Source: Panagrolaimus kolymaensis (taxonomy: Eukaryota; Nematoda; Chromadorea; Rhabditida; Panagrolaimidae). Taken from it: a DNA stretch of 64,000 bases. The position numbers and the translations under genes were made by a program. The DNA lies in the NCBI GenBank assembly GCA_028622995.1, contig JAJQJQ010000004.1:3596001-3660000 (forward strand). Reading direction: 5' to 3'. A model generated the notes under the pieces. The model saw only the letters and a list, made by a program, of their open reading frames with translations. It was not told where the DNA came from and ran no database searches. This document shows positions 6,812 to 38,062 of the stretch, piece after piece; the first letter of the stretch is position 1, and each line of letters starts with the position of its first letter.

Positions 6812-7007
6812 ACTTGGCTAATTATTTTGTAATTATACTAATATGTAAATGATATTAATGTACTAATTTGAATGATTTGTAATATGTAAATGTGACAATA
6901 AAGAATTTTGAAATTGTACCAAAAAATGCGTTCAAAATATGTTTTTATTGTTGGTTAATATAAATAATACAAAAAAGAGTAAATATAACATAATAACATA
7001 ATTAATT

Positions 7008-8457
7008 TTAACACTCTTCAACAATCTCCGAAACAATATCATGAGAAGATGGAATCCTAAGAATTTGTTTGATTTCATTTCGAGTTAATCCTGAAGTGGC
7101 TTCTCCATCGTAAATGCTGTTCTCATATTGAGATTTTTGGTTATAATAAAGGGAACTACTGAAGTTGGAAGCAGCTAGGAAAGAAGCTTCAGAAAGTGAA
7201 AGCATTCCAAAAATAAAAGTAAAAACATAATTTCCGCAATAACATATAAGGCTTCGTGAATCAATAATAAATCTGACACGTCGAGGATCACAAAGTTTTG
7301 GGAAGTTTGAAATTTCTGCTTTGTAAGTGAATCTGAAAATTATAAAATGATGGTGGAAGAGTTCAATAAATTAGTAACGATTGTTGGAAAGCTAATAAAA
7401 TGGATTTTCTGGAAAACTTACTTTGCTTTTAATTTTTCTTCATTGATGGATACCGTGTACAAATTGGCTTTGTAATCGGTGGAACCTTCAAACTTTTCAA
7501 AAGCTAAGCAATAAAGCCCAATTGCACTGCTATAAAATCCAGCATAAATACATTCCTTCAAATCTGATTCAGCAATAATCTCCAATTTTCTTTCTAATTC
7601 AAGGTCTGTTCCAACTAATACTAATTCATAATCATGAAACTGTACAGCTTTTCCCAAATCGATTACACCAATATTTGATTGAATATTTAACCCACCAGCA
7701 ATAATTCCAATGGATTCTTGAAAGGTGCAAACTTTTTTTTCAATATCTAGTTTAAGCTTGAGTTGGAAGCAATCAATTAAAGAACCCGTTTCAAATGAAA
7801 ATCGCGGTAGCGGTTCAGCATGCCATGGAGTAATGATAATTTGGGATGGATCATTTGGGCTTTGAAGTACATAACTTCCGCAACATTCATTACACAAAGC
7901 TTTGGAAATTTCGCTAGGGATATGGTTGCTTTCGTAATCAATAGTAACATTGGTTTGAAGGTTCATCGATGATAGATAAAAATTAAAATCATTCTGGGTA
8001 TTTTTCTGAAAAGTTAGTAAATTTTTTAAAATGATTTATAAAATTTTGATTAATTATTTACCGTTCCATAAGAAGCAACATAAAGTTCATCACCGATGAT
8101 TCCATAAGCAGCCGAAACACCTTCGCTACAAAAGCATGTGTTTTGATTTGAAATCTTGTAATTCCAAACAAGTTCCCAACTACCAGTATTGATAACCTTT
8201 TTGCGATAAATATTTAATTCTTCCCGAAAAGAATTAGCCGAATACAAATAACCATTGTGAATTCCAATTAAAGTTCCATAAACATCGCCATTTATATTTG
8301 AGGTTGAATGTTCAGAAATAAAAAACATATTTAAATAAAAGCAAATATAAATAAATATATAAATATGGAGAATTCTGAATTCGGAGAGAACAATAATAAA
8401 ATGATGATGGGTTTCAGAATTCCCAAAGAATTGCAATGGTTTTTTTATTGGCCTCAT
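7008..8457 (-). CDS. Unknown 434-aa protein with N-terminal hydrophobic anchor
   Basis: Exons: 8062-8457, 7422-8005, 7008-7332. Junctions fall in frame and the total is 435 codons including the stop. The N-terminus has a strongly hydrophobic stretch (residues about 22-45, rich in I, F, Y, L), compatible with a signal anchor. The middle contains repeated short hydrophobic strands and paired cysteines (CFCSEG, CNECCGSY). Near the C-terminus a second hydrophobic stretch (ICYCGNYVFTFIFGML) precedes a polar tail. I recognise no family; a secreted or membrane beta-rich protein is inference. The start lies 116 bp downstream of the METTL25B-like stop on the same strand, a spacing typical of nematode operons, but I see no clear trans-splice acceptor in that gap. 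Confidence 0.6.
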
Positions 8458-19210: not shown

Positions 19211-21283
19211 TTAATCAGGTTGTTCAATAGCAATTCTTTCAATTCCTTGATCTTGATTATTTCCCATAGGAATTCCTTGTAAATCGCCAATTCCTGCAAA
19301 CTGTCTTGCTGCGGATGGATTTGTTCCAATTGGATAATCTTCTGAAGCAGGGCATTCAAAATGTACACAATGAAATACTTCATTTGCGGAATTATGAGTA
19401 CCCACAATTCGAATATAACAAACAGGTTGCATTTCAAATTGAACTCGACGCCAACTTGAAACTTCTAATTCTTCAACAATTTGATGCCATTTTGTTTGAT
19501 CGGGTGATACTTCAATATAATATGAATATTGTCGATCATCACAATCCCAAAGTAAAAGACCCATGGAATCAATCATATATGGTTGGGGTAATTGAACTAC
19601 AATGGAACCTGATCCAAGTTGATGACATGTGTAACCATTATCCCAATCATAATTTATTGTATCACCATTAAGGAGAGCATTACGACTACGTGAAACTCCT
19701 TCGATTACAACAGCATTATTTTGAATTGTTGCAACATTATGTTTTGGAATTAAAATGGATGTAGATGTATCAACTTCGAATGGTTCAGTTATGAACATAG
19801 CTTCGAAATTAGAAATATGAAAGGTGGAAGAAGAATGAGTTGTTGAAGTTCCACAAATTCGAATAAATCTGTAAAACGTAAAACGAAAAATACAGTATGC
19901 GACTTTATGCGTTTTTTTAACTAACCTAACAACTTTTTGATTAAAATATAAATTTTGTGTACTTCTGCATAAATATTTTGTGTGATCAATAACTCGAACC
20001 CAATCAAGTTTATCAATGCTAACTTCAATGAAATAACAAAGGGATTGCTTTTCTCGATCAAGAAGTCGGAATTTAATGTGATTTATAATATAAGGACGAG
20101 ATAGTTGAATAATAATTCCTTGATCCTTTTCATTTATTGAATGCTTCAAAGCTGATCGATCTCCACCTACAGGGGTTTCAGAATCAGATACATTTTTTAA
20201 ATTATCACCAGAAATTATTTGAAAATCATAAGTTGGGGTTGCTATATTAACATTATGAATTTTAAATCCACGAAATCCTAAATCACTGCTACGATTTTTG
20301 GTTTGAGCATCTATGGCATCAAGCAATCGATCAGATGGAAGAAGCCCAGATGGTCGAATAACATTTAAAAGATCATCCAATTTAATTAAAGATAATCGAA
20401 TATGGGTCATTAAACCAGCAAAATATTTTTGTTCTGAAGGATTTGAATCCATCCATTCTCTAACAGCTTTAAAAATATTTACTTCTGGAGCGCAAAATGA
20501 ATCACGAGAAATTATTTGTTCAAGTGCATCAGCTGTGAGGGATTTAAAGGTTGCATGCTTGATAATGACTTCAGCGTGGAAATCGATAAAATCCAAACAA
20601 GAGATTGCTAATGATCGCATAACAAACATTTGAGATGCCATAAAAATATTGCAGACATTATCAGGTTTACATATTTCCTTAAAATAACCACATTGTTGGT
20701 TTACTATAGATCATAAAAAATTCAAACCTTCAAATACTCTGAAACATTATGCTCTAATTCAGTAAATCCATATTTATGAACAAGCCCAAGAATATCAAAA
20801 ACTAAATCTGTTTTCATTTCTTTCAATTGCATTCTCCCCGTGTAAATGTATTCTAATAAAACTCGAAAAGCATGAACTGGAGTTTCTTGAAGTTCAACAG
20901 ATTTTTCATACACTTCCCTCATTCCTCCGAAGAACATCGCTCTGTAATTTCAAAACTATAATTATAAAAAACTTAAAAAAACAATCATACTTGAAATAAA
21001 TGCTTCTTGCAGCTAAAATAACTTTATGAGCAGGAAACTTTTGTCCTTCAACAACAAGGATAACATCACTGCATTCTTCATTTAAATATAAGTTACTAAT
21101 ATGGGTAACAAGTCGATGCATTTCTTCGCCAATTATTGATCCTGAACGAGAACTTCTTGTTGATCCTTCATCTGATGGTTGGGAACGCATATCCATCATA
21201 TCAGTTTGCCGGCTTCGAGTTGGATTATCACTAGAAAGAGAATAATTTTGTTGTGCGCGCCCTCGATTAGGACGATATGCCAT
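19211..21283 (-). CDS. BTBD9 homologue (BTB-BACK-F5/8-type domains)
   Basis: Exons: 20991-21283, 20728-20941, 19926-20677, 19211-19868; 638 aa. After a serine/arginine-rich N-terminus, the BTB domain (residues about 65-165: CSDVILVVEGQKFPAHKVIL, then FFGGMRE and LLEYIYTGRM) is followed by the BACK region (RDSFCAPEVNIF, LLNVIRPSGLL). Two discoidin-like repeats follow, each with an HIKFRLLD/GLLLWDCDDR-YSYYIEVS core and an FIRICGT/YIRIVGTHN end. Human BTBD9 has the same order and acts as a CUL3-type adaptor linked to dopamine, iron and sleep phenotypes. The last intron (19869-19925) is in frame and stop-free, but splicing restores VVR-FIRICGT. The apparent upstream start is a TTG, so I use ATG 21283. 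An acceptor TTTTCTAG lies 12 nt before it. Confidence 0.93.
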
Positions 21284-21630
21284 TGCCAAAAATTACTAGA
21301 AAAATATGGGTGATAAAAATGTTGTGAAAACGGCTATCTCCTCCACATAAAATCAAGAATAAAGGTTTTATCGAATCAAATCTAAGAACAGCTGCCCTAT
21401 TTTAAGAAGTACGTCATCATCGCTTTCTTTAGCGAATGGGTCATAAAGTATTATTGTTTAAAGCGGAGAAAACCGCAGTTGTATAATCACCATCAAACAA
21501 GGATATTTGTAAAAAAAAGTTGTTTAAATAAATAGGAGATCAAATAAGAAAAAAACAAAAACAAAGGTAGCAGTAACAATAAAAATCAAATGTTTTTAAA
21601 ATGATTGAGCTTCTTCTTGTAGTCGTGACT

Positions 21631-22290
21631 TCAGTAACGTCGATCGTTGAATCGATCGAAACGTCGACCAGCGGGATCAATAGGACGGCGTTGAAATTCT
21701 CCAGGACCAGTACGATTTGGAACACGAGCAGGGGTTATTGCGACATCAACATAGTCTCCAACTTGAAATTTGCATTCTGATAGCGTTTTACCATCATCAA
21801 CTCCTCTTTGACCATTTGTAGTTATTCCAACACTTCTTATATTCATTCGATTGGAGCGCATATCAGGAGTGACTGAAATAACCATGATCAATATTTACTA
21901 AAGAAAGTTTAAACTAACCAACAGCGAAATCAAAAGTTGTTCCACGACGTCTTGAATCAACATTAACATCTTTTATCAACATCATAAGTTCGCGAAGAGT
22001 GCAATCCATCCTGAAAAAAAGGCAGATAAAAAACCAGAAAAATTTGCAAAATAAAAAGAAACAGACCATGTGTATATTTGTAATTCATTGTGAGTAGGAA
22101 CAGATCCATTTTTGAATTCATGAATTGGATTATGGCGCATATTTGCACAGAAAATCCGCAATAATAATGGACAAACCTAAAAATGGTTTTATTAATAAAC
22201 AACTTTCCAACCGAAAAAAAAACTCACTTTTTCTCGATCAATAGCTTTATCAGCTTTGATATCAACTTCAGATATAACGTTAGAATGCAT
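21631..22290 (-). CDS. SAP18 (Sin3-associated polypeptide 18), conserved copy
   Basis: Exons: 22228-22290, 22067-22176, 21919-22010, 21631-21872; 168 aa. The ubiquitin-like SAP18 fold is visible in IDREKVCPLLLRIF, HNPIHEFKNGSVP, ELQIYTWMDCTLRELM, then GTTFDFAVVTPD and FQVGDYVDVAITP. The C-terminus is arginine-rich. SAP18 joins the Sin3-HDAC corepressor and the ASAP/PSAP exon-junction splicing complexes. The start ATG follows a TCTTCAG acceptor (22310-22311) by 19 nt. The giant palindrome begins 188 bp upstream of this ATG, and a divergent paralogue lies on the other side of it in the opposite orientation. Confidence 0.92.
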
Positions 22291-22468
22291 TTGAATAAAT
22301 TTCTTCACACTGAAGATGGAAATCAAAAAATTTGTCAAAGACCAACAACTTTGATTAAAACAAGAACTTGATTGATCGTTGTTTGCTGTATTTTTTTTTG
22401 AGCTATGAAAGCAAGCAAGCTTTTGGAAGGAAAAAGGCAATCTTCGTTTCAAGATTTTTTCCATGAAA

Positions 22469-22477
22469 AAACAAAGC
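22469..22477. repeat. 9-bp target-site duplication, left copy
   Basis: AAACAAAGC directly abuts the left end of the palindromic element and is repeated in the same orientation at 33406-33414 directly after its right end. Confidence 0.8.
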
Positions 22478-22489
22478 GGCTTTTGTGAA

Positions 22490-22565
22490 AGTTCGCGACG
22501 TCGCGAAGTCGCGATGTTTGTTTTCGCGTCGAGACCATAAAAAAATTGTGCAAGTTCGCGATATT
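22490..22565. repeat. TCGCGA-rich terminal motif cluster, left end
   Basis: Within the first 90 bp of the arm there are TTCGCGACGTCGCGAA, then GTCGCGATG, TTCGCGTCGAGAC and TTCGCGATA. The first is itself a perfect palindrome. These GC-rich words stand out in a strongly AT-rich region and recur mirrored at the right end (about 33318-33393). They are a plausible transposase-binding or end-recognition site. Confidence 0.55.
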
Positions 22566-22707
22566 TTCTTTTTTTGCTTTTCTACTGATTTTTATTCGAA
22601 TTTTATTTATATTTTATTACAAATGTCACATATTTAAAGTAACAAATACTAAAAAAAGTTAAAAGGCAGGATTATAATTAAATGACAAAGAAAATACAAA
22701 GCATTGA

Positions 22708-24003
22708 TTATTCCTTTGGTTTAGGAGCTTCTGCGAATTCATTAAGAATAATTTCATCTTTAGGATGAGTATAATGAGCTTCTTGAACTGATAAATATGC
22801 AAATACTTTAGCAAATCTATTTATCATATCCAATTGGGGAACTTCAATTTCAATAATTTAAGTTGCTTGTGGTTTATCTTTACGAGCTGCTTCATGAAAA
22901 GTTTGAACTTGCTAAGGTAAAAGACGCATTTGACTTATATGTTAGGAAAATTTTTATTATCGTTAACATTTTTACCGTTTATTGATATAACAATTTTTAA
23001 AAAGAAGGAGATAAAAAAGCTCAAGTTGTCAACATTAGTTTACGCATAAAATCAGTCATAATAATTTTGGCTTTGACAATCTTCACTTGCACTATCTAAT
23101 TATGAACCATGACTTTGATCATCAGTGATTTCGCATTGATTCTAAAAAAAATTATAACTTGGTTTTCAGAAAATTAATGACTTACTGAAATCGAAAAACT
23201 TTCTTTTTCGACAATGTCTTCAAAGCTCAATTCTGGTTTACTATCATTGATTGCTTCCCAAGGAAGAGAAACGGACAATTTATCGTAAGACTTAGTAACT
23301 AAAATAAGTAATTTATTTTGTAACTTTCTAAATTCCTTTAACTTACAATATATATATATAAAAAATTTGGTTTTTTAGAAAGACTTTAGAAATGGATTTT
23401 TTTTAGCGCTATGATGAAAGTAAATTACAAAAAGTTTTAAACTATGGAACGCATAAAAGTATTAATCAAACGTTTTTTTTAAGACTCTTATTGTATTATT
23501 TAAAAAAGAATACAATCCAACTACGAGAACGCATATGGGATAAGCTAGAGTTAAACAATCAAGATATTACCTTTGGATAAGCTGTCATCATTGTTGTTCT
23601 TGCTAATTATTTCCACTTTGGCTTTCACGGGAGCAATATGATTTCATCGTGGATTATTTGTTTTGGGAGGGGTGGGACAATTTTCATCTTCGCTAACATC
23701 ATAACCTTTATTGGAAGCATTATCATTTTGAGAATATTTTAGTTTTTGGTTCTCCCTTTCACGCTCTTGTTGTTCCCTTTTAATGTGATCAGCCTCATCA
23801 CGCTCCCGTTGTTGCTCCAACTGAACGCGTTCGGCCTCATCACGTTCACATTGTCGGCGCTCTGCCTCCATTCTTTCTTTTTGATGATTCTTTTGAACTG
23901 CTTCAAGGGAGGATTTAAATTCATCACAGTCCTTTAAACGCTGTTCCTTTTCTGCATTTTCATTGTGATTTTTGTCATCCGATTTAAGAGAAATGGAAGA
24001 CAT
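22708..24003 (-). pseudogene. Broken multi-exon gene fragment in left arm (mirror of 31880-33175)
   Basis: Exact mirror of the right-arm copy; see the entry at 31880 for exon structure. It has the same stops at the mirrored positions, so both copies carry the same lesions. Confidence 0.55.
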
Positions 24004-24813
24004 ATCTTTAATTAAAATAATTTTAAAATAAAACAAGTTTAAGAAAATAAAATTTCACGAGTAAAATTAAAGAAAAATTTAACATTAAGCGTATGTACCA
24101 GCAAATTATCATAATGAACTTTAACAACAAGCTCTTTAATAATCTTTCATCCGAAAAAAGTTGCAAAATCAAACGCTTAAATAAAAAATTTGACTAATAA
24201 ATCACCTGGCGCTTTTTCTTTTTACTTTCCGCTTACTTACACTGTCTCTTGAACTTTAATTTTTTTATATAAAACAAATTTGTCTTTGAAAGAGCTTATT
24301 TTGAACTGAGCCGTCAAAAAAAAAAATTGCGCTTTTTTACTCTTTTCGTCAGATCCTTTTTTCCAAACAAAAAAAAAATAATGCTTTTAAACCAATTTTT
24401 TCTCTTGAAAAATTTAAGTATGGCTAATAATATTATTTTGTTTGTGCAAACAATACAATCAATGTGGTCATTTCACACATTTGAGGTCCATCGAATGGTG
24501 GAGCTGAATATTTAGAACAAAGTCCAGTGGGAAACTGAGCTCAACGATTACTAATTAATACAGTGAAACTTAAGAAAAGGCTATTATTCCCGTAAACATC
24601 AGTCATTAATACTTGGATTTAGCCATTTTAACAAAAAGTACAAAAATATGTAAATACTATTTTACATTACACTCAAATCTTCTAAATCCTTAACCTTAAA
24701 AGTTATTAATTCTTTGTCGTTCATTAACAGGTGAAGAATGTGTAATTGAAAATGCACCACATAGCTCATATAAATAACAAAATGACTGGCATTATTAGTG
24801 ACAATTAATTTGT

Positions 24814-25239
24814 ATGCCAGCAGAAAAAATTTTTAATAATAAAACTTTCGATCTCGAAGATTTAGAAATTGTCACATGGAGAGGAAATATTTATAATTCT
24901 TATATTTCTACGGCTATAATTCGTTATGACGTTAACAAAGAAAGTTTCGTTATTGACGATTTTAATATAAACCTCGATACTGCCGATGCAACGTCAGTTA
25001 GAAAAACTAATAAAAGAAAACCCAATTACGATACCATAGTTGTAACACCAAAAATGATTAAAATTGAAGATGACTTAAATCAACCAAATACTCAAACCAT
25101 TGCAATTGCTGTAGAAATGGAGCAATGGATATTGATAATAAAGATTTTGAAAAAGAGGGTTGGTATTAAAAAGAGTGTTGAAACTTGGAAGTCTTACGCT
25201 TATAAAAAAATTAGTAGTATGACAGATAATCTGAAATGA
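24814..25239 (+). CDS. 141-aa ORF in left arm, unrecognised
   Basis: An open frame beginning MPAEKIFNNKTFDLEDLEIV. It is rich in D, N, I and K, with a basic KRKPNYDTIVVTPKMIK segment and a lysine-rich C-terminus. It lies upstream of, and on the same strand as, the Helitron-like region, so it could be the relic of that element's N-terminal coding part. No domain is recognised. An identical copy is present in the other arm (30644-31069, minus). Confidence 0.35.
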   Translation: MPAEKIFNNKTFDLEDLEIVTWRGNIYNSYISTAIIRYDVNKESFVIDDFNINLDTADATSVRKTNKRKPNYDTIVVTPKMIKIEDDLNQPNTQTIAIAVEMEQWILIIKILKKRVGIKKSVETWKSYAYKKISSMTDNLK

Positions 25240-25389
25240 AAAAATGATTGTAATTAATCAAAAATGAATGCAGCGGTAAAATTGAATGAAATGCAAAGAA
25301 AACGAGAAGTAGCAAGGGAAAAAAGATTATTATTATTAGCACCTGAAAATAATAATTGAAGTAACGAATTGATACAGCTCTCGAAAAAA

Positions 25390-26790
25390 ATTTTTATTTC
25401 AGAGAGCAAACAATAATCTTAAACATCAAAATGCTGAGATGATGCGGTTCTCGTGAAAATGAAACAAATGTAGAAAAACGACGTGAAAGATGATGGGATA
25501 GCGTAAAAGAAAGTATAGCAGATTCAAGGAAATTACAAAAAAAATTGAACCCTAACAAGCTTTGGATAAAGTTAAATATAAAAGGCGATGTGTGTCTTAA
25601 ATTATAAAACATTTTGTGAAAAGAGTGGAGCTTGTTTTAAAAATGTTAATCTTATTTATTACGAGAAAGGATTAAATTTGTATTCACTAGTAAAGCCGAA
25701 TATTTTAAACAAGAAAAACGGCAACCAGATGGAATCTGTAATTTATGCTGTCGACTATGTAAAATAATAATAGATTCATCAGTTGATGATTATCCCAAAG
25801 ATTTATAAACGTTTATGAGGAAGCTAGTATAAGGATAAAAGCTTAGTTTAAAACTTTCATACTAATATTCGTAATTATAACACGAGTCATAGTTTGCAAA
25901 GATGCATCCAAAACATGTTACCATACATACTAACATTAAAACATCAAGGAAGAGTTTTGTACATAATGAGTCGAATTTTTTATTCAAGTAACAAAGCCAA
26001 TGCATTTGACTATCAACTTTATATTCTTGACAGTCATAAAGCAACAAAATAAAGAATAAATGCTCCTACCAATTTGGAAGCGAATTTGAATGGAAATTTA
26101 ATGGGAATGATTGATAAAGCTATGAGGGAACATAAAGTTAATGTGCAAAGTTTTGTAATGTTAAAGGAAACAACTGAAAGAGATAAAGCTGAAAAATAAG
26201 CTAATAATGAATCCATTCAAGGTTTAAAGTTAATAATTTTTGTTAATAAACCTAATGCAAAAAGGAATTATGATGCAATTGTTGCCTTTGAAGTAGCATT
26301 GATCTAAGGTCAGAATGGAGAAATTTTCAAAGAAAATATTGTTATTATAAAAAGGAATATTGATGGTGAATTCAAAAATATTTAAAAGATGGTGATAATA
26401 CGACGGATCTTTAGTTTATCCATTGTTTAATACACCCGGAAAATTTGATTTTTATGAATTTACCAAAAGAAAGATCCAAACAAACCAAATTCACAAAAAA
26501 AATGAGTAAACAAGAATATCACGCTTATAAATATCATGTAAGAGATGAAAAGGCGAATGGCTTATTGCATTATGGTGGAATGCTTTTCTTACAACATTTA
26601 TTTCAAGGGCAAAAACAGAAAAAGATCGATTAAATTATTTGAGATTTAACCAAGACAAAATCAATGCCGCTATTTACTTACTGATTTGCATTAAGAATTA
26701 AATAAAAAAGCATGAAAGGATGACAAATTACCAGGAAGTATTTATGGTTTACCAAGTTCATTTTATGAAAGATCAATGGTGTATTAGAGC
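25390..26790 (+). pseudogene. Decayed Helitron Rep N-terminal (Helitron_like_N) region, left arm
   Basis: Across three frames, and in the right order for a Helitron Rep/helicase, I read several family pieces. A zinc-binding-like CNLCCRLCK (about 25740) comes first. Then come NFHTNIRNYNTSHS (about 25850), AFDYQLYILD (about 26000) and a PNAKRNYDAIVAFEVAL segment. After those come a YPLFNTPGKF segment, then MSKQEYHAYKYHVRDE, and RFNQDKINAAIY followed by GSIYGLPSSFYERSM (about 26740). The order corresponds to the conserved C..CC, F..NIRxYN, QLYIYD, YDxPTxxEVA, YPLLFPHG, YYAYR and LPSSFxGSPR blocks. Multiple TAA/TGA stops and at least three frameshifts destroy it. The two-histidine/two-tyrosine catalytic part and the helicase are absent downstream. 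Confidence 0.7.
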
Positions 26791-27160
26791 GAATAGATTT
26801 AGAGAGAAGTGCATCTTCAAAAAGATTGAAAATTGAGTTATTACCGAACTAATATTTTTCTGCGTCCTTTGACAACTGGACGAATAAGTTTTTTGAAATT
26901 AAATTATTCTCTTTTTATTTTTTTTACATTCGTGGCTTTCTTTTGTTGCTTAAAGTGCATAGGTTTTCAGCAAAAGATGCTAAATTGCTGTAGCTTGCTA
27001 GTTTGTTACAATTTATTCGTACCCATTAAAACACCACTTTCATTGTGATTTTGGAAAGAAACTACGGGATTATTAACCAAAAGATTGCCTAATTGTCCTG
27101 ATGTGGATGGAGCTAACCGGTAGTCTTTTGTGTGCAACATATTTAAAACCATTTGGTATT

Positions 27161-27772
27161 TCATGAATCACCACTATCGTCATCAACGCTGTTATTTTCT
27201 TTTTCCTTTTCATCATTGAATTGGAGTTCATAAAAGAATTTCAATGGACTTTCTTCCATGGCTCTTCGTTCATCGGGCGTGAAATCATTGATGAGTTTGA
27301 GTTATTTTTGAAATTTTGGGCCTTCAAGTTCATCAATTTTGTTTAAAACATAATATCCTACAGCTTCAAAAAATCTTTGGGAATAAAGAAAGTCATCTTA
27401 AAAAGTATAAAATTTAAATTCCGCATCGGTGAAAGAACCAAAAAATAAATTTAGTAAATTTTTAATCCTTGGGTGATGAAACAAATTCAAAATGATTATG
27501 TGGTTCAAGAAATTTTTTAAGTTGTTTTGGATTCATTTCAACATCTATGTTTTCTTTTTTATCCGTATGTTACGTAACATTTTTAAGGATGGAGCAATAA
27601 TATCGCGTGGATTAACTTCAATGGTAAAATCAGGGATAGCAATGGAGTGAAGAATAATTTTTGTCGCTTCGGATGGAAGAATATCAGCAGCAGTTGTTTG
27701 AGTGGCTATTAAAGCAGATAAACATTGGAGAAGTTGAGCAAATAAAAATGCGAAAAAGGATATAAATGACAT
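27161..27772 (-). pseudogene. Broken signal-peptide protein fragment, left arm (mirror of 28111-28722)
   Basis: Mirror copy of the right-arm fragment described at 28111, with the same breaks. Confidence 0.45.
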
Positions 27773-27816
27773 TGAAATAAATTTTAATAATGAAAAGAGT
27801 TGTTGTTGTTATTATT

Positions 27817-28066
27817 GGATGCATCACGATTATGTCCCTTATTATTTCACCTTCGAAACACCATCATAATGGATTGAGCTTTATTTCAAAACGGCTATTT
27901 TTATGATTTGATGCTTGCGTGTTTGGTGCTTTTAGTTTATGTTTATTTCATAGAAATTAGTAGCCAAATAAGTTATTCTAATATGCCTTATAATCAAAAA
28001 TAAATTAACGGAGTCCGTTGTTATCCACAAAGCAAGCATTAGAAAATAAGTATGACATGCCACAAT
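27817..28066. other. Unique 250-bp spacer between the arms
   Basis: This is the only part of the element that is not mirrored. The arms stop matching at 27817 (G) opposite 28066 (T). It is AT-rich and has no long ORF. Being single-copy, it is the natural anchor for checking the structure with reads or PCR. Confidence 0.85.
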
Positions 28067-28110
28067 AATAATAACAACAACAACTCTTTTCATTATTAAA
28101 ATTTATTTCA

Positions 28111-28722
28111 ATGTCATTTATATCCTTTTTCGCATTTTTATTTGCTCAACTTCTCCAATGTTTATCTGCTTTAATAGCCACTCAAACAACTGCTGCTGAT
28201 ATTCTTCCATCCGAAGCGACAAAAATTATTCTTCACTCCATTGCTATCCCTGATTTTACCATTGAAGTTAATCCACGCGATATTATTGCTCCATCCTTAA
28301 AAATGTTACGTAACATACGGATAAAAAAGAAAACATAGATGTTGAAATGAATCCAAAACAACTTAAAAAATTTCTTGAACCACATAATCATTTTGAATTT
28401 GTTTCATCACCCAAGGATTAAAAATTTACTAAATTTATTTTTTGGTTCTTTCACCGATGCGGAATTTAAATTTTATACTTTTTAAGATGACTTTCTTTAT
28501 TCCCAAAGATTTTTTGAAGCTGTAGGATATTATGTTTTAAACAAAATTGATGAACTTGAAGGCCCAAAATTTCAAAAATAACTCAAACTCATCAATGATT
28601 TCACGCCCGATGAACGAAGAGCCATGGAAGAAAGTCCATTGAAATTCTTTTATGAACTCCAATTCAATGATGAAAAGGAAAAAGAAAATAACAGCGTTGA
28701 TGACGATAGTGGTGATTCATGA
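28111..28722 (+). pseudogene. Broken gene fragment with signal peptide, right arm
   Basis: The frame opens with a hydrophobic leader (MSFISFFAFLFAQLLQCLSAL) and runs 75 codons (IAIPDFTIEVNPRDIIAPSL). It then breaks and resumes in another frame with two internal TAA stops (LFFGSFTDAEFKFYTF, then FFEAVGYYVLNKIDEL and FTPDERRAMEESPLKFFY). It ends in an acidic tail with a TGA at 28720-28722. This looks like a captured secreted-protein gene that has decayed. I do not recognise the family. The left arm carries the identical copy. Confidence 0.45.
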
Positions 28723-29092
28723 AATACCAAATGGTTTTAAATATGTTGCACACAAAAGACTACCGGTTAGCTCCATCCACATCAGGACAATTAGGCAATC
28801 TTTTGGTTAATAATCCCGTAGTTTCTTTCCAAAATCACAATGAAAGTGGTGTTTTAATGGGTACGAATAAATTGTAACAAACTAGCAAGCTACAGCAATT
28901 TAGCATCTTTTGCTGAAAACCTATGCACTTTAAGCAACAAAAGAAAGCCACGAATGTAAAAAAAATAAAAAGAGAATAATTTAATTTCAAAAAACTTATT
29001 CGTCCAGTTGTCAAAGGACGCAGAAAAATATTAGTTCGGTAATAACTCAATTTTCAATCTTTTTGAAGATGCACTTCTCTCTAAATCTATTC

Positions 29093-30493
29093 GCTCTAAT
29101 ACACCATTGATCTTTCATAAAATGAACTTGGTAAACCATAAATACTTCCTGGTAATTTGTCATCCTTTCATGCTTTTTTATTTAATTCTTAATGCAAATC
29201 AGTAAGTAAATAGCGGCATTGATTTTGTCTTGGTTAAATCTCAAATAATTTAATCGATCTTTTTCTGTTTTTGCCCTTGAAATAAATGTTGTAAGAAAAG
29301 CATTCCACCATAATGCAATAAGCCATTCGCCTTTTCATCTCTTACATGATATTTATAAGCGTGATATTCTTGTTTACTCATTTTTTTTGTGAATTTGGTT
29401 TGTTTGGATCTTTCTTTTGGTAAATTCATAAAAATCAAATTTTCCGGGTGTATTAAACAATGGATAAACTAAAGATCCGTCGTATTATCACCATCTTTTA
29501 AATATTTTTGAATTCACCATCAATATTCCTTTTTATAATAACAATATTTTCTTTGAAAATTTCTCCATTCTGACCTTAGATCAATGCTACTTCAAAGGCA
29601 ACAATTGCATCATAATTCCTTTTTGCATTAGGTTTATTAACAAAAATTATTAACTTTAAACCTTGAATGGATTCATTATTAGCTTATTTTTCAGCTTTAT
29701 CTCTTTCAGTTGTTTCCTTTAACATTACAAAACTTTGCACATTAACTTTATGTTCCCTCATAGCTTTATCAATCATTCCCATTAAATTTCCATTCAAATT
29801 CGCTTCCAAATTGGTAGGAGCATTTATTCTTTATTTTGTTGCTTTATGACTGTCAAGAATATAAAGTTGATAGTCAAATGCATTGGCTTTGTTACTTGAA
29901 TAAAAAATTCGACTCATTATGTACAAAACTCTTCCTTGATGTTTTAATGTTAGTATGTATGGTAACATGTTTTGGATGCATCTTTGCAAACTATGACTCG
30001 TGTTATAATTACGAATATTAGTATGAAAGTTTTAAACTAAGCTTTTATCCTTATACTAGCTTCCTCATAAACGTTTATAAATCTTTGGGATAATCATCAA
30101 CTGATGAATCTATTATTATTTTACATAGTCGACAGCATAAATTACAGATTCCATCTGGTTGCCGTTTTTCTTGTTTAAAATATTCGGCTTTACTAGTGAA
30201 TACAAATTTAATCCTTTCTCGTAATAAATAAGATTAACATTTTTAAAACAAGCTCCACTCTTTTCACAAAATGTTTTATAATTTAAGACACACATCGCCT
30301 TTTATATTTAACTTTATCCAAAGCTTGTTAGGGTTCAATTTTTTTTGTAATTTCCTTGAATCTGCTATACTTTCTTTTACGCTATCCCATCATCTTTCAC
30401 GTCGTTTTTCTACATTTGTTTCATTTTCACGAGAACCGCATCATCTCAGCATTTTGATGTTTAAGATTATTGTTTGCTCTCTGAAATAAAAAT
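29093..30493 (-). pseudogene. Decayed Helitron Rep N-terminal region, right arm
   Basis: Exact mirror of the left-arm copy (25390-26790), read on the minus strand and carrying the same stops and frameshifts. Confidence 0.7.
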
Positions 30494-30643
30494 TTTTTTC
30501 GAGAGCTGTATCAATTCGTTACTTCAATTATTATTTTCAGGTGCTAATAATAATAATCTTTTTTCCCTTGCTACTTCTCGTTTTCTTTGCATTTCATTCA
30601 ATTTTACCGCTGCATTCATTTTTGATTAATTACAATCATTTTT

Positions 30644-31069
30644 TCATTTCAGATTATCTGTCATACTACTAATTTTTTTATAAGCGTAAGACTTCCAAGT
30701 TTCAACACTCTTTTTAATACCAACCCTCTTTTTCAAAATCTTTATTATCAATATCCATTGCTCCATTTCTACAGCAATTGCAATGGTTTGAGTATTTGGT
30801 TGATTTAAGTCATCTTCAATTTTAATCATTTTTGGTGTTACAACTATGGTATCGTAATTGGGTTTTCTTTTATTAGTTTTTCTAACTGACGTTGCATCGG
30901 CAGTATCGAGGTTTATATTAAAATCGTCAATAACGAAACTTTCTTTGTTAACGTCATAACGAATTATAGCCGTAGAAATATAAGAATTATAAATATTTCC
31001 TCTCCATGTGACAATTTCTAAATCTTCGAGATCGAAAGTTTTATTATTAAAAATTTTTTCTGCTGGCAT
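30644..31069 (-). CDS. 141-aa ORF in right arm, unrecognised
   Basis: Identical mirror of the ORF at 24814-25239. See that entry for composition and possible origin. Confidence 0.35.
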   Translation of the reverse strand: MPAEKIFNNKTFDLEDLEIVTWRGNIYNSYISTAIIRYDVNKESFVIDDFNINLDTADATSVRKTNKRKPNYDTIVVTPKMIKIEDDLNQPNTQTIAIAVEMEQWILIIKILKKRVGIKKSVETWKSYAYKKISSMTDNLK

Positions 31070-31879
31070 ACAAATTAATTGTCACTAATAATGCCAGTCA
31101 TTTTGTTATTTATATGAGCTATGTGGTGCATTTTCAATTACACATTCTTCACCTGTTAATGAACGACAAAGAATTAATAACTTTTAAGGTTAAGGATTTA
31201 GAAGATTTGAGTGTAATGTAAAATAGTATTTACATATTTTTGTACTTTTTGTTAAAATGGCTAAATCCAAGTATTAATGACTGATGTTTACGGGAATAAT
31301 AGCCTTTTCTTAAGTTTCACTGTATTAATTAGTAATCGTTGAGCTCAGTTTCCCACTGGACTTTGTTCTAAATATTCAGCTCCACCATTCGATGGACCTC
31401 AAATGTGTGAAATGACCACATTGATTGTATTGTTTGCACAAACAAAATAATATTATTAGCCATACTTAAATTTTTCAAGAGAAAAAATTGGTTTAAAAGC
31501 ATTATTTTTTTTTTGTTTGGAAAAAAGGATCTGACGAAAAGAGTAAAAAAGCGCAATTTTTTTTTTTGACGGCTCAGTTCAAAATAAGCTCTTTCAAAGA
31601 CAAATTTGTTTTATATAAAAAAATTAAAGTTCAAGAGACAGTGTAAGTAAGCGGAAAGTAAAAAGAAAAAGCGCCAGGTGATTTATTAGTCAAATTTTTT
31701 ATTTAAGCGTTTGATTTTGCAACTTTTTTCGGATGAAAGATTATTAAAGAGCTTGTTGTTAAAGTTCATTATGATAATTTGCTGGTACATACGCTTAATG
31801 TTAAATTTTTCTTTAATTTTACTCGTGAAATTTTATTTTCTTAAACTTGTTTTATTTTAAAATTATTTTAATTAAAGAT

Positions 31880-33175
31880 ATGTCTTCCATTTCTCTTAAA
31901 TCGGATGACAAAAATCACAATGAAAATGCAGAAAAGGAACAGCGTTTAAAGGACTGTGATGAATTTAAATCCTCCCTTGAAGCAGTTCAAAAGAATCATC
32001 AAAAAGAAAGAATGGAGGCAGAGCGCCGACAATGTGAACGTGATGAGGCCGAACGCGTTCAGTTGGAGCAACAACGGGAGCGTGATGAGGCTGATCACAT
32101 TAAAAGGGAACAACAAGAGCGTGAAAGGGAGAACCAAAAACTAAAATATTCTCAAAATGATAATGCTTCCAATAAAGGTTATGATGTTAGCGAAGATGAA
32201 AATTGTCCCACCCCTCCCAAAACAAATAATCCACGATGAAATCATATTGCTCCCGTGAAAGCCAAAGTGGAAATAATTAGCAAGAACAACAATGATGACA
32301 GCTTATCCAAAGGTAATATCTTGATTGTTTAACTCTAGCTTATCCCATATGCGTTCTCGTAGTTGGATTGTATTCTTTTTTAAATAATACAATAAGAGTC
32401 TTAAAAAAAACGTTTGATTAATACTTTTATGCGTTCCATAGTTTAAAACTTTTTGTAATTTACTTTCATCATAGCGCTAAAAAAAATCCATTTCTAAAGT
32501 CTTTCTAAAAAACCAAATTTTTTATATATATATATTGTAAGTTAAAGGAATTTAGAAAGTTACAAAATAAATTACTTATTTTAGTTACTAAGTCTTACGA
32601 TAAATTGTCCGTTTCTCTTCCTTGGGAAGCAATCAATGATAGTAAACCAGAATTGAGCTTTGAAGACATTGTCGAAAAAGAAAGTTTTTCGATTTCAGTA
32701 AGTCATTAATTTTCTGAAAACCAAGTTATAATTTTTTTTAGAATCAATGCGAAATCACTGATGATCAAAGTCATGGTTCATAATTAGATAGTGCAAGTGA
32801 AGATTGTCAAAGCCAAAATTATTATGACTGATTTTATGCGTAAACTAATGTTGACAACTTGAGCTTTTTTATCTCCTTCTTTTTAAAAATTGTTATATCA
32901 ATAAACGGTAAAAATGTTAACGATAATAAAAATTTTCCTAACATATAAGTCAAATGCGTCTTTTACCTTAGCAAGTTCAAACTTTTCATGAAGCAGCTCG
33001 TAAAGATAAACCACAAGCAACTTAAATTATTGAAATTGAAGTTCCCCAATTGGATATGATAAATAGATTTGCTAAAGTATTTGCATATTTATCAGTTCAA
33101 GAAGCTCATTATACTCATCCTAAAGATGAAATTATTCTTAATGAATTCGCAGAAGCTCCTAAACCAAAGGAATAA
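31880..33175 (+). pseudogene. Broken multi-exon gene fragment, right arm
   Basis: Exon-like pieces with good splice borders remain. The first (31880 to about 32315) encodes a coiled-coil, E/R/Q-rich segment (MSSISLKSDDKNHNENAEKE, then ERDEAERVQLEQQRERDEAD) and carries one TGA at 32237-32239. After a GTAATAT donor and a TTTTAG acceptor comes 32585-32697 (SYDKLSVSLPWEAINDS), then 32742-32783, ending in TAA. A further acceptor-led block (32972-33175) reads TFHEAARKDKPQAT, a TAA stop, then IIEIEVPQLDMINRFAKVFA, and ends APKPKE-stop. Retained introns argue for capture at DNA level rather than retroposition. I cannot name the source gene(s). Confidence 0.5.
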
Positions 33176-33317
33176 TCAATGCTTTGTATTTTCTTTGTCA
33201 TTTAATTATAATCCTGCCTTTTAACTTTTTTTAGTATTTGTTACTTTAAATATGTGACATTTGTAATAAAATATAAATAAAATTCGAATAAAAATCAGTA
33301 GAAAAGCAAAAAAAGAA

Positions 33318-33393
33318 AATATCGCGAACTTGCACAATTTTTTTATGGTCTCGACGCGAAAACAAACATCGCGACTTCGCGACGTCGCGAACT
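33318..33393. repeat. TCGCGA-rich terminal motif cluster, right end
   Basis: Mirror of the left-end cluster. It includes ATCGCGAACTTG, GTCTCGACGCGAAAAC and CGCGACTTCGCGACGTCGCG just inside the right boundary. Confidence 0.55.
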
Positions 33394-33405
33394 TTCACAA
33401 AAGCC

Positions 33406-33414
33406 AAACAAAGC
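33406..33414. repeat. 9-bp target-site duplication, right copy
   Basis: AAACAAAGC, identical and in the same orientation as 22469-22477. The bases beyond it (CGCGTTCAAACG) do not match the left flank, so the duplication is exactly 9 bp. Confidence 0.8.
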
Positions 33415-33542
33415 CGCGTTCAAACGTTTTCAAATTTATTTTTGTTTTCAACTTTGTCACTTGCTTCTTCGACGACCACTAACAACCATTTAATAATTCA
33501 ATCAATCAACGAATCGATTGATCTTTATTATTATTACTGAAT

Positions 33543-34394
33543 ATGGGCGATGACATTTCTCTCAAAATCCTTGATACAGCTATAAAAAAGTGTTGGAATT
33601 CCAACTTCAAGAATAGTAAGTTTACATTCACTCATTTCATAAAAGTTTTCTAATTTTTGTTTTTCATTTTTTAGGAGAGAATTTATTCCATGGTCTTTCT
33701 GATTGTAAAGAAATTCTCGAACAAAGAAGTGAAATTAAATCCGAGGTAAGATTTATTTAAAGTCTTGTGAAGTTATTTTTAGTTAATTTTTAGGTTGTGG
33801 AAAGATTAAGTTTTCTCAAAAATCTTCCTGAAATCATAAAACCACGAAAACCAACATTATTATTGCGAATTTTCTTTTCTAACCCTCGTCATAATCCAAT
33901 TGAAAAATACAAAAATGGATCTGTACCTATTCGAAATGAGCTGAAAATATACACATGGTTTGATTCTTAGTTTAAAATATCATTTTAATCTAACTTTTTT
34001 AGGATTGATTGCACACTCAAAGAACTTATGATGTTGATAAAAGATGTTAATGTTGATTCAAGACGTCGAGGAACAACATTTGATTTCGCTATTGGTAAGA
34101 TTAGCTTAAAATACCTTTATTATCATTTTGCTACTTTCTTTTATTTCAGTCACTCCTAATATGCGCTCACTTCAAACTAAAATGAAAAGTGTGGGAATGA
34201 TAACTATTGGACAAAGAGGAGCTGATGATGATAAAATGCTGTCTGAATGCGAATTTCAAGCTGGAGATTATCTTGATGTTGCAATAACCCCTGCTCGTGT
34301 TCAAAATCGTGGTGCTCCTGCAAATCTTCAACGTCCTCCTAATGGCCCGTCTGATAGGCATGTTCGATTCAAAGATCATGATCGACGTTACTGA
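33543..34394 (+). CDS. SAP18, divergent paralogue
   Basis: Exons: 33543-33615, 33675-33745, 33794-33957, 34003-34094, 34150-34394; 214 aa. The core is clearly SAP18 (PTLLLRIFFSNPRHNPIEKY, ELKIYTW, TLKELMMLIKDVNVDSRRRG, TFDFAIVTPN, FQAGDYLDVAITPARV). Its N-terminus is different and about 45 residues longer (MGDDISLKILDTAIKKCWN), encoded by two extra exons. The conserved DREKVCPLLLRIF entry is changed to KPRKPTLLLRIF. The three downstream intron positions match the copy at 21.6 kb, so the pair is a duplication with later divergence. No stops are seen. The 5' end starts 138 bp from the palindrome. Confidence 0.9.
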
Positions 34395-34594
34395 AGTCAT
34401 TATTACAAGAAAAGGCTCAATCATTTTAAAAACATTGTATTATAGGTTTTTTTATTCCATTGTATAAATATACGGGTATCATTTGTTTGATTTTGGTTTT
34501 TTAATTCGTTTTCACGAAGAAGTTTATTGTATTTTTGTGGTTTTTTGTACAATCGTGTTTGATTTTTAAAAGCTTTAGCTTTAATATTACGACA

Positions 34595-35026
34595 ATGCCC
34601 AACGACGAACTTTACAGCGTTAGACGAATTCTTGATAGTAAAAAAGAAAAAGGATCAACCCAATATTTGGTTGATTGGGCTCCATCCTATGTAAATGCAA
34701 GCTTTCTTCCAAAGGAAGTTATTGAAGAATATAAACTTTATAAAAATGGTGTAAACATTATTGGCCCTTATGAACCTTCAACCAAAGTGAAAAATAATCG
34801 AAATTGGAAATGGGTTGTTCAATTGTAATTTTATAAAGATATCTTTAGTAATTAAGATTGAGGGTTTTTTAGTGGTGACGAATACAAAACTCTTCCTCAT
34901 GATGAAGTTGTAAGCAAGTTTAAAGATGAACTTATTAAATATTTCATGAATCAAGCCACTGTTGTTTCAAACACAACCAAGGAAAGCAATCACAATAATA
35001 ATGAAAATGATAGTGACGACGATTAA
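34595..35026 (+). CDS. Small chromodomain-like protein (127 aa)
   Basis: Exons: 34595-34824 and 34873-35026, frame closed. Residues about 7-50 read YSVRRILDSKKEKGSTQYLV then DWAPSYVNASFLPKEVIEEY. This is the beta-strand/helix pattern of a chromodomain (Y-x-V-x-x-I-L-D ... QYLVxW ... N-x-x-F-x-P). The usual second aromatic-cage residue is not obvious. The remainder has WKWVVQF and a C-terminal stretch of N, S and D. Such small proteins read methyl-lysine on histones or act as HP1-like adaptors; the function here is inferred from the fold only. It follows SAP18 by 200 bp on the same strand. Confidence 0.6.
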
Positions 35027-35380
35027 AAGATCTACATGACTCAAGTAAAAATTGACGATCGATTATGACATGATTACGGGAATAATTATTTTGTAATTCA
35101 ACCATCTTTTAACTTTGTATTTTAATTTTTGTACCTTTATTTTCCTTACAATGATGTATTCATTTGACAATAAGTATTTTAAAGATCCGCTTTTGTGTAG
35201 TTTATCATACATACAATTTGATGATGGGGTATAGGTGGTAGCTATTGAGAAATCTCACATAAAAATCACACACTGATAACAATATTACTCCAAAAATTTA
35301 CCTTTAAAAGTGCTTTAAATAAAGCGTCTCATTGTCATTTCTATTGGTTTTATCAGACAGAAAAGAAAAAATAAAATAAA
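35027..35380. other. Intergenic, no gene seen
   Basis: 3' flank of the chromodomain-like gene and promoter side of the saposin-like gene. Nothing else is recognised. Confidence 0.5.
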
Positions 35381-35846
35381 ATGAAGTTAATCGTCGTTTT
35401 GGCTGTTGTTTGCGTTGCCTCGGTTTTTGCTGTTTCCATTCCTGTAAGTTTTACCTACTCCAAAAAATGATTGGATTAAAACTGTAAGCCTTAACAAAAC
35501 CTCTTTATCCATTTTAGCAAAGACTTGACGGTGTTACCGATTCATTTAAATGTATCCTATGTCAAGACGTTTGTAAAGATACTGAAAAATGGGAGGGTGA
35601 TGAAGAACAAGAACATGAAGCAGGTCAAATTGCTAAATGTGAAAAGCTTCTTGGAACTAGCACAATAGCTAAACTTATTTGTGATGATTTTGTCAAAAAT
35701 GAACTTGATGCTATCATCCAACATATGGAAGATCCAAATACTGAGAAGAGCGGTAAAATAAAAAATTTTTAAGCACTTCCAATATTTTAATGCCCAAATT
35801 TTCAGATTGTAAGAAAGCATGCCAAGATATCAAAATGTGCAAATAA
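35381..35846 (+). CDS. Secreted saposin-like (SapB) protein, 112 aa
   Basis: Exons: 35381-35443, 35518-35752, 35806-35846, frame closed. Residues 1-18 are a textbook signal peptide (MKLIVVLAVVCVASVFAVS), and the first intron falls just after it. The mature part has the cysteine spacing of a single SapB domain: CILCQDVC, then KCEKLLGTSTIAKLICDDFV, NELDAIIQHMED and DCKKACQDIKMC. The two central cysteines and the ICDDFV/DAIIQ helices are typical of nematode saposin-like proteins. Many of those are secreted in the gut and act on membranes or lipids. Its extra cysteines suggest one or two additional disulphides. Confidence 0.82.
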
Positions 35847-38062
35847 TAATTTACAATCGTTTGATTTTCAATCTCCATTATTTTTGAATCATCACTATTC
35901 AGTGTTTTTCTTTTGTTTGAAGTTTTTTAACCTGCCATAAATGTTGTTTTTAAAGTTAGTAAACAAGCTACTTTACTATTAAATACACATACAAATAACA
36001 AAAACTAAACATTCAAAAATATCAGAGGAGCGAGAAGCTATTTAAATTAATAGTCTCATAAACTAATGAGAATTTTGAGTGATTACTAAAAAACTTCTTT
36101 CGATTTTGAATTTAATAGTATTTGCAATCTACAAAAGTTTGCATTTGAATATTGCAATAAGAATGATTCGAATCCAAGGCTTTTATTGTATTTTAATTTT
36201 CTTTACCATGGAATTGCTTAAAATTTTGATCATCTGAAGCCAGAATAAAATCAAGTCTTCTGTATACAGCTTTAATTCTCTAATAATTTTAATGAAAATC
36301 TTTCTTTCTTCTTATCTATTTTTAAATTTAACGTCTTTGTAATCTTTGGTTTCATTTCCGCTGATCGCGATCGCTCCTTTTTGCATTTTTTCATTCAAGT
36401 TTCTCTCCTCCAACCCAATTTACCCTTTTAGTTTGACATTCTTTGGTCTTTAAAAAAATTTTCTTTCCTTTTTTCCAAAATGCGGAAAGACGGTGTTTCT
36501 CTTTTCATATGAAAAATAAAATCGTCTTTTTACATTGTTCAAGTTTCAATGTATGTTGTTTACAGATACCGATCAATACTTTTTAGTGACAGACAGACAA
36601 ACAACGCTAATGCGCTGCTGCTACTGCTCATTGCTAAAGGGCCATAGAAATGAAAAAAGGCAACAAGCAGCTACGATGGGGCTGCTTTTTTTTTTTTTTG
36701 CGCTGCTACTACTAACTACTATGTACTGACAGACGGCTAGCAATTTTTCTGTTTTTAGTATGGGCGTAACAATACAGCGGCGCAAGTGAGTCAATGGAGA
36801 AAAAAAAATTTAATTTTAGAAGTTTCCTTTTTTACGTTGCAAAAAAATAGAAGTTTCTGCCATAATCGATGACGAGGAGAGTATGTTTATGAAAAGGTTT
36901 AGAAGATATGATGAGTACGATTTAGCCTTTGCAAACAGCTGCCGCCGCAGTTATACCTAAAATTGCGCAGTCAATAGAAAATCAAAACCTTTGAATCTAT
37001 GAAAAGCGTGCTTATCGACCATAAATGTCCAGGCCATAGCATGTCAAGCTGTTGCTTTTTTGGGGCCATATCAAAGTGTTTATTTCCATTTTTTTAAATT
37101 AAAGTTTAAAATCAATGTCTAAATTTTCTTGAAGTTTATGCATTTTTAGTGGTGCAAATAAAGTAAGCCTAATTGCTCGCTATAACTCCACCGTTTTTTT
37201 ACTTTCCTTATCGCACGACAATAAAATTCTTTACTCCCTTTGCTTACATTCTTCACGTACATCCTAAAAGTAAACATACAAAAATTTTGTTGTCGCCTTT
37301 ATGTATTTCCGGCAAAATTTGATTGATTATATAGGTTTTTTAACATCATTTTGCTTTCTATTTCCCCCGTGAATTTCAGCATTTACTTTGCTTTTTGTAA
37401 AAAACAGCTTTGTTAAAAGCTTCTCGACTGCTATGAAAAAAACTATGAAACCAACGATAAGTGAAAGGGAAAAAAAGAGCTTTTTGGCAAATGACGACGA
37501 TAGCAATAGCAGCCAGCGGTAGTAGTTTCTGGCCTATTTACGTCACAAGTTCTAAAGAAGCAGCATCCCAGCGACAAGCCCGAGAAAATGAAAAGAAGGA
37601 AGAAAGAAAAAGCTTTTTTACTTTTCAAAACGGCCGTTTCTTTTTAGTTAGCTTTTTTTCGTTATTTGTGCGCTGTTGTTTTTCGTCTGCAAAATGGCGA
37701 AACAAAAAAATAAGAGAGAAAAGGGATGGAAGAACCCCATCGATTCAGGCCTAAACCAAAAAACTGAAATATTTATTTTTCAAGTTTAGTTTTATTTATG
37801 TTCGCTAACTTTAGTAATGTTTTAGAAAAATTTGATGTAATTTTGAAAGAAAAAGTGTTTGATTTTGGAGAGAAAAAAAAGTTTTGATAACCATTTTTTT
37901 GAAAGGGTGCAAAATGCATTGATTTTCACGTGTTCACTCGCTCATTCGCTCGTTTACATAGCCTAAATTTGTGCTTTTCGTTTTTAAAATTTTTGAAGAT
38001 CCTTTTTTCAATCCACCAACATTTTATTTCATCAATTTTTTTTTCAGTCCCACGGACTAACC
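35847..38062. other. Long 5' region of the Na,K-ATPase gene
   Basis: No coding exon is recognised. A TTTTTTTTCAG acceptor at 38046-38047, 15 nt before the ATPase start, implies either a non-coding first exon with a long intron here or a trans-spliced outron. A run of CATT/CTCATTCGCTCG words near 37935-37960 is unremarkable. Confidence 0.5.

What the first reader, a model, noticed from the sequence alone, without database searches (positions are those of the whole stretch)
22478..33405. 10.9-kb palindromic element with 5.3-kb identical arms and exact 9-bp target duplication
Two 5,339-bp arms mirror each other with no indel (all mirrored positions sum to 55,883) around a 250-bp unique spacer. 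The exact 9-bp direct repeat AAACAAAGC abuts both outer ends. This combination is what transposition of a single foldback unit would leave. Known foldback and MULE elements have 9-bp duplications, but arms making up 98 percent of an 11-kb element, with no intact transposase and two copies of every cargo fragment, are unusual. It could be a new class of giant foldback transposon.
Basis: partly seen in the sequence, partly recalled or inferred. Interest (0 to 1): 0.93.

Follow-up and report, generated by a model that had tools for sequence, protein, structure and literature searches.

The report
Mobile palindromic copy of nematode transposon
An 11-kb, almost fully mirror-image DNA segment in a nematode genome is a back-to-back double copy of one end of an ordinary 6.5-kb jumping gene, and it has itself jumped; this is a striking variant of known foldback elements rather than a new class.

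Summary
The genome explains it. The parent is a 6,485-bp transposon with ~200-bp terminal inverted repeats and 9-bp target duplications; nine intervals of that length exist, three read in full. The palindrome is parent 1-5339 joined through 2 bp to parent 5591-1 reversed, so both tips are the parent's left tip; the spacer is parent sequence kept in one half only. A second copy, identical over all 10,928 bp, lies on another contig with a different 9-bp duplication; homeologous unoccupied sites exist for both. It is therefore real and has transposed as a unit. It is not a new class but a derivative of a Mutator-like (by structure) family carrying a broken Helitron-derived fragment; no transposase source was found. 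Its architecture matches maize Mu killer. A sister family holds an independent inverted duplication. The genome is very probably Panagrolaimus kolymaensis (inferred). How it formed, and whether it makes silencing hairpin RNA, is not shown.

The parts
22469..22477 (+). left copy of 9-bp target site duplication AAACAAAGC
   Evidence: a single copy in the unoccupied homeologous sites L044 (exact) and L043 (one substitution)
22478..27816 (+). left arm = parent element bases 1-5339
   Evidence: identical to the L031 element over 5,339 bp
22478..22677 (+). left outer tip (parent left TIR, about 200 bp, starts GGCTTTTGTGAAAG)
   Evidence: TIR alignment; self-BLAST
23644..24036 (-). 130-aa ORF rich in charged residues (coiled-coil-like by eye); only sub-threshold Pfam matches; a longer related frame (188 aa) in relative L040
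24802..26759 (+). broken coding remnant homologous, in its later part, to the N-terminal part of a Helitron Rep/helicase gene
   Evidence: parent 2928-4282 aligns at 85% to L038 3401-4755, where a PF14214 frame begins at 4697 (E 2.6e-27); the L037 frame is PF14214 E 8.6e-9
27815..27816 (.). 2-bp microhomology (TT) at the junction of the two half-elements
27817..28066 (.). asymmetric centre (spacer) = parent bases 5589-5340, present only in the right half-element
28067..33405 (-). right arm = parent element bases 5339-1, reversed
29124..31081 (-). second, mirrored copy of the broken Helitron-like remnant
   Evidence: mirror of 24802-26759
31847..32239 (+). mirrored copy of the 130-aa ORF
33206..33405 (-). 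right outer tip, which is again the parent's LEFT TIR, not its right TIR
   Evidence: reverse complement equals parent 1-5591 exactly
33406..33414 (+). right copy of 9-bp target site duplication

Best explanation
The element is a mobile foldback derivative of a non-autonomous, Mutator-like (by structure) TIR transposon family. The parent is 6,485 bp long with ~200-bp TIRs and 9-bp target duplications (shown). A repair accident produced a dimer with two left ends: parent 1-5339 joined tail to tail with parent 1-5591 through 2 bp of microhomology, losing both right ends (structure shown, pathway inferred). The pathway I rate most likely is aberrant gap repair: after excision, both broken ends copied in from the same left end of a sister element, because the TIRs are 96% alike, and were then joined by microhomology. 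Fold-back synthesis or sister fusion is the alternative. Because each end carries a complete left TIR, a transposase supplied in trans can cut and insert the 10.9-kb palindrome as a unit (inferred). It has done so at least once: two loci with different 9-bp duplications hold the identical 10,928 bp (shown).
For: Parent anatomy; the three copies read in full are identical over 6,485 bp. All 13 matching ends held (9 single copies plus 4 palindrome ends) are identical over 2,500 bp. Second palindrome C32:2797163-2808090: 0 differences in 10,928 bp, inserted in the opposite orientation, TSD AAAAACTTT, flanks unrelated to the window's. Unoccupied sites: window site in C11 and C5; C32 site in C1, and partly aligned in C6. 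Of 11 copies of this and the sister family read at both intact tips, 10 have exact 9-bp duplications and 1 (L038) has 8 bp. An inverted duplication in the sister family (C1, arms 1,978 bp; same element type at C19, 99.9% identical) shows that such accidents recur.
Against: No transposase with these TIRs was found: 0 of 74 PF10551 places lie inside the 40 tip intervals I could pair, and 4 MULE loci read lack these TIRs. Only 100 of 132 tip matches were listed, so a master copy could be missed. 'Mutator-like' therefore rests on TSD, TIR length and gene-fragment cargo alone. A frame of L037 gives a Mutator transposase match (PF00872) only at E 0.14, below cut-off and inside the Helitron match, which I count as chance. 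The C1 derivative has no overlap at its junction and lost a tip, so it did not arise in exactly the same way. The empty C6 homeolog of the C32 site aligns only to about 14 bp past the junction. No reads were seen.
Confidence: 0.86

Rival explanations
1. Composite origin: two parent elements inserted close together in opposite orientation, a deletion fused them at 5339 and 5591, and the two outer left ends then moved as one unit.
For: Unequal breakpoints 252 bp apart and a 2-bp overlap fit end joining. The family has many near-identical copies (59 close tip matches).
Against: Needs two insertions within one short interval plus a deletion; no two of the 26 tip intervals lie closer than 147 kb on one contig, though a donor could have been lost.
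Confidence: 0.3
2. Fold-back (snap-back) synthesis or sister-chromatid fusion at a break in the element, giving inverted flanks too; both present copies are later transpositions.
For: An asymmetric centre with a tiny overlap is typical of such inverted duplications (recalled, no call). The sister-family C1 case has a 1,750-bp asymmetric centre and a lost tip, as a non-transposed product might.
Against: Neither palindrome read has inverted flanks; no search for a donor with inverted flanks was made.
Confidence: 0.25
3. Assembly or chimeric-read artefact (false inverted duplication).
For: Palindromic chimeras are a known long-read artefact (recalled); no reads were available to me.
Against: A read chimera would carry the same flank on both sides. 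Here each locus has two different flanks that abut in homeologs (C32 locus via C1), exact TSDs, and the same 10,928 bp recur at a second unrelated locus. The paper reports 84x HiFi with mean read length 14.4 kb, longer than the element, if this is that genome.
Confidence: 0.03
4. A new class of giant foldback transposon whose normal form is the palindrome.
For: It is mobile as a palindrome, in two copies.
Against: Nine 6,485-bp intervals with the same tips, three read and ordinary, and a 91%-identical ~5.37-kb subfamily; palindromes are 2 of 26 close pairs. No tandem repeats in the arms.
Confidence: 0.04

Closest known systems
Mu killer (maize MuDR derivative; PMC3440606, abstract and introduction read)
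   Same: Two TIRs taken from the same end of the parent, partial element copies ending in an inverted duplication, Mutator parent with ~215-bp TIRs.
   Different: Described there as one locus, its centre not fully sequenced; here two copies each have an exact 9-bp TSD, so the palindrome itself moves. Arms are 5.3 kb. No transposase gene recognised inside; silencing untested.
Foldback / Tetris / Galileo type elements (PMC4079207, PMC3573991, passages read)
   Same: Long inverted arms; Tetris has no conserved ORFs and 8-10 bp TSD.
   Different: There TIRs grow step by step, in part by internal tandem repeats; the longest Galileo TIRs in D. mojavensis are about 1.26 kb. Here 98% of the element is one perfect inverted repeat without tandem repeats.
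Tm1 Mutator/Foldback family of root-knot nematodes (PMC3169594, abstract and two of three parts of Results read)
   Same: Nematode, 9-bp TSD, mostly non-autonomous copies.
   Different: TIR sequence and composite structure differ; a pattern joining Tm1 motifs D and C has 0 matches in this genome; Tm1 copies are about 0.17-2.6 kb.
Pack-TIR / Pack-MULE elements of animals (PMC8277862, abstract read)
   Same: TIR elements that enclose captured gene fragments; gap filling proposed for their birth.
   Different: Here the cargo includes a Helitron gene piece, and the remarkable product is an inverted dimer.

Membership tests
Mutator-like TIR transposon (MULE) | target duplication of about 9 bp | tested here: met
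   10 of 11 copies read at both intact tips have exact 9 bp, 1 has 8 bp
Mutator-like TIR transposon (MULE) | terminal inverted repeats of about 200 bp, as in maize Mu | tested here: met
   200 bp at 96% in the parent; 197 bp at 98.5% in sister C4; Mu value from PMC3440606
Mutator-like TIR transposon (MULE) | MULE transposase encoded by an autonomous member with the same TIRs | tested here: inconclusive
   0 of 74 PF10551 places inside 40 paired tip intervals; 4 MULE loci read lack these TIRs; 32 of 132 tips were not listed
Foldback element | element made mostly of inverted repeats that move as a unit | tested here: met
Foldback element | internal tandem repeats in the arms (seen in Galileo and Tetris) | tested here: not met
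   0 arrays at score 50 in 20000-36000
Mu killer-type inverted MULE derivative | both tips from the same parental end, inverted duplication at the centre | tested here: met
Mu killer-type inverted MULE derivative | hairpin transcript that silences the family | not testable with these tools
   no RNA data; a read-through RNA of the central 650 nt would fold at -383 kcal/mol, which follows from the palindrome and does not show transcription
Tm1 (root-knot nematodes) | Tm1 TIR motifs | tested here: not met
   0 matches of one 27-base pattern (motif D plus C) with up to 3 mismatches; the tip is GGCTTTTGTG, not motif A1, A2 or B
Helitron | no TIR and no target duplication (recalled) | tested here: not met
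   the element has both; the Helitron piece is cargo
Pack-TIR / Pack-MULE | captured host gene fragment with an identified parent gene | tested here: inconclusive
   sister C4 element carries a helicase C-domain fragment, PF00271 E 2e-8; parent gene not sought

The most novel reading that the evidence does not exclude
The palindrome is a mobile Mu killer: a transposon derivative that, wherever it lands in a transcribed region, yields a 5-kb hairpin RNA with a 250-nt loop, feeds the nematode RNAi pathway, and silences its own young family while spreading by it. It would be the first self-propagating silencer of this kind in an animal that I know of.
Probability: 0.12. Interest if true: 0.8.

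Novelty: new variant of a known kind. Interest (0 to 1): 0.5.

Why it matters
It gives parent, derivative, second insertion and unoccupied sites for one very young palindromic transposon in a single genome, so the old question of how foldback elements arise, and whether perfect palindromes over 5 kb can still transpose, becomes directly testable. It also gives a natural animal counterpart in structure to maize Mu killer, very probably in a nematode that has been revived from permafrost and kept in culture (PMC10374039, passages read).

Tried and rejected
Rejected: assembly artefact (different flanks, exact TSDs, identical second copy, unoccupied sites); segmental duplication of one locus (flanks of the two palindromes show only chance-level matches); membership in Tm1 (0 matches of one pattern); the element being a Helitron (the Helitron gene at C77, with Rep and PIF1 domains, shows no match to these tips in the 10 kb read); arm identity kept by gene conversion (not needed, because unlinked parents are equally identical).

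Paper searches listed no title or abstract start that reports a mobile, fully palindromic TIR element of this size; most of the listed papers were not opened, and the library lacks most subscription journals.

Not examined: whether each of the other tip pairs is palindromic; the right ends of six of the nine 6,485-bp copies; all 64 frames of the arm; small RNA or transcript data; raw reads.
Full report
Observation. The mirror relation is exact. Every position from 22478 to 27816 pairs with its complement at 55,883 minus that position: 0 mismatches in 5,339, and mismatch begins at once on both sides. The centre is 250 bp (27817-28066). AAACAAAGC occurs on the + strand only at 22469-22477 and 33406-33414. 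ARAGORN found no tRNA in the window and the tandem-repeat finder no array in 20000-36000.

The host. The window is C3:3,596,001-3,660,000 of an assembly of 265.84 Mb in 807 contigs. A BTBD9-like gene beside the element (19211-20641, minus strand) has, as its best named relatives, proteins of Panagrellus, Halicephalobus and Panagrolaimus at 58% identity; an unnamed metagenome protein is closer, at 65%. The Panagrolaimus kolymaensis paper (PMC10374039, passages read) reports a triploid HiFi assembly of 266 Mb with 856 contigs, and 49 mitochondrial contigs; 856 minus 49 is 807. I infer that this is that genome; the match of numbers is mine, not a named record. The same passages give 84x HiFi coverage and a mean read length of 14.4 kb.

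The parent. A search with the first 1,000 bp of the arm found 13 places at 100%, two of them the window's own, and 16 at 91% among 41 matches; only 40 of 111 candidates were scored. Pairing the 59 close tip matches gives 26 intervals: nine of 6,485 bp, two of 10,928 bp, twelve of 5,367-5,372 bp, and three others; seven tips stayed unpaired. The three 6,485-bp copies read in full (L031, L032, L033) are identical to each other. Each has TIRs of about 200 bp at 96% and an exact 9-bp duplication: GTCCAATAA, GAAAAAATT, GAGAAAACC. All 13 left-type ends held, from the nine single copies and the four palindrome ends, are identical over 2,500 bp. The left arm equals parent 1-5339. The reverse complement of the right half equals parent 1-5591. 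The two pieces overlap by 2 bp at the junction. The 'unique' spacer is parent 5340-5589, read backwards. Both outer tips are the parent's left TIR; the parent's right end, 5592-6485, is absent.

Mobility. A second palindrome at C32:2,797,163-2,808,090 is identical to the window's over all 10,928 bp, in the opposite orientation. Its duplication is AAAAACTTT, and its flanks are unrelated to those in the window. At the window site, two homeologous loci (96% and 94% to the left flank) align without interruption across the junction with one target copy: exact AAACAAAGC in L044, one substitution in L043. For the C32 site, L048 aligns across the junction end to end with a 2-bp insertion just past the target, and L047 aligns only up to about 14 bp past it. 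So the palindrome moved as a unit at least once; it moved twice unless one of the two copies was born in place. Each insertion is in one of three homeologous loci found, which suggests that it came after those loci diverged.

What kind of transposon. Of 11 copies of this and the sister family read at both intact tips, 10 show exact 9-bp duplications and one (L038) shows 8 bp; the C1 derivative below, which lost a tip, is not among them. A sister family has the tip GGCTTTTATTGAAAG. Two members read (L039, L060) share about 4.4 kb of the parent's interior at 79-90%. A 14,245-bp member (C4:3,485,370-3,499,614, TSD GACGGACAG) shares with L039 its tips and about 1.4 kb at 94%, and carries a helicase C-domain fragment. 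Duplication length, TIR length and fragment cargo are Mutator-like. No transposase partner was found: none of 74 PF10551 places falls inside 40 tip intervals that I paired, and four MULE loci read lack these TIRs. Only 100 of 132 tip matches were listed, so this is inconclusive. One L037 frame matches a Mutator transposase model (PF00872) only at E 0.14, below cut-off, inside its Helitron match.

Cargo. The 8,807-bp member at C19 (L038) carries an open 239-aa frame with the Helitron Rep domain (PF14214, E 2.6e-27), and a frame of the ~5.37-kb subfamily carries its start (E 8.6e-9). The parent keeps only a broken N-terminal part: the stretch of L038 from 4755 to 7030, which holds most of the Rep frame, is missing between parent 4282 and 4939. 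A Helitron gene with Rep and PIF1 helicase at C77 is 80% identical to the Rep piece of L038 and shows no match to these tips in the 10 kb read. Helitron protein is thus cargo, not the motor; TSDs and TIRs are not Helitron features (recalled). The arms contain two copies of this broken remnant.

How it formed. Inferred. Three routes fit: aberrant gap repair in which both broken ends copy the same left end; fold-back synthesis or sister fusion; or two opposite insertions plus a deletion. Gap repair is attractive because it explains why both halves start at base 1, why the breakpoints differ (5339 and 5591), why there is a 2-bp overlap, and how a TSD could be kept; gap filling is proposed for animal Pack-TIRs (PMC8277862, abstract read). 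An independent case in the sister family shows recurrence. C1:2,908,046-2,913,751 has perfect 1,978-bp arms around 1,750 bp. It is made from the right part of an element of the type at C19:3,013,412-3,020,359 (99.9% identical, TSD GAAAAAAGC), with no overlap at the junction and one tip lost. That case differs in detail and gives no sign of later movement.

What it does. No function is shown. The structure matches maize Mu killer, which has two TIRs from one end and an inverted duplication, and for which a hairpin RNA is proposed as the silencing trigger (PMC3440606, abstract and introduction read). If transcribed through, the centre must fold into a hairpin (expected for any palindrome). Whether it is transcribed, and whether small RNAs arise, was not testable.

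Verdict. It is a new variant: a transposing, almost wholly palindromic derivative of a TIR family whose parent, derivative, second insertion and empty sites are all present in one genome.

Noticed in passing
G000 C5:2983854-2983897 (L055), also C5:3633177, C5:5810900, C6:2997545, C6:3272461, C25:1624906: 44-bp stretches made of two facing 20-bp family tips 4 bp apart (six places among the 100 listed); the one read (L055) is a perfect palindrome with ACGT at its centre and no 9-bp duplication around it. Perhaps the smallest possible foldback, a capped element end or an excision product.
   Followed up: partly
window 21589-22169 and 33855-34436: The insertion lies between two arms of an older inverted duplication (78% identity); C5 and C11, the two homeologous unoccupied loci, hold the same arrangement.
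   Followed up: no
L010 1469-1500 and L022 1469-1500: A 6,485-bp copy on C3 and a 5,371-bp copy on C7 share 32 bp of left flank including the 9-bp target sequence, then unrelated DNA; possibly the same short repeat was hit twice.
   Followed up: partly
G000 C4:3485370-3499614 (L051, L052); tip pairs of 14.6-15.2 kb on C2 and C3: Giant sister elements of 14-15 kb; the one read has a 9-bp duplication, a long low-complexity repetitive frame and a helicase C-domain fragment; three others were seen only as tip pairs.
   Followed up: partly
G000, 150 places scored: Many Helitron Rep frames: over 100 of the 150 scored places lie in open frames of 1,400 aa or more, mostly 42-46% identical to the captured Rep piece; Helitrons look recently active in this genome.
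   Followed up: no
window 27545-27808, minus strand, and its mirror: A short frame in the arms begins like a secreted protein (hydrophobic leader judged by eye); a related frame is in L038.
   Followed up: no
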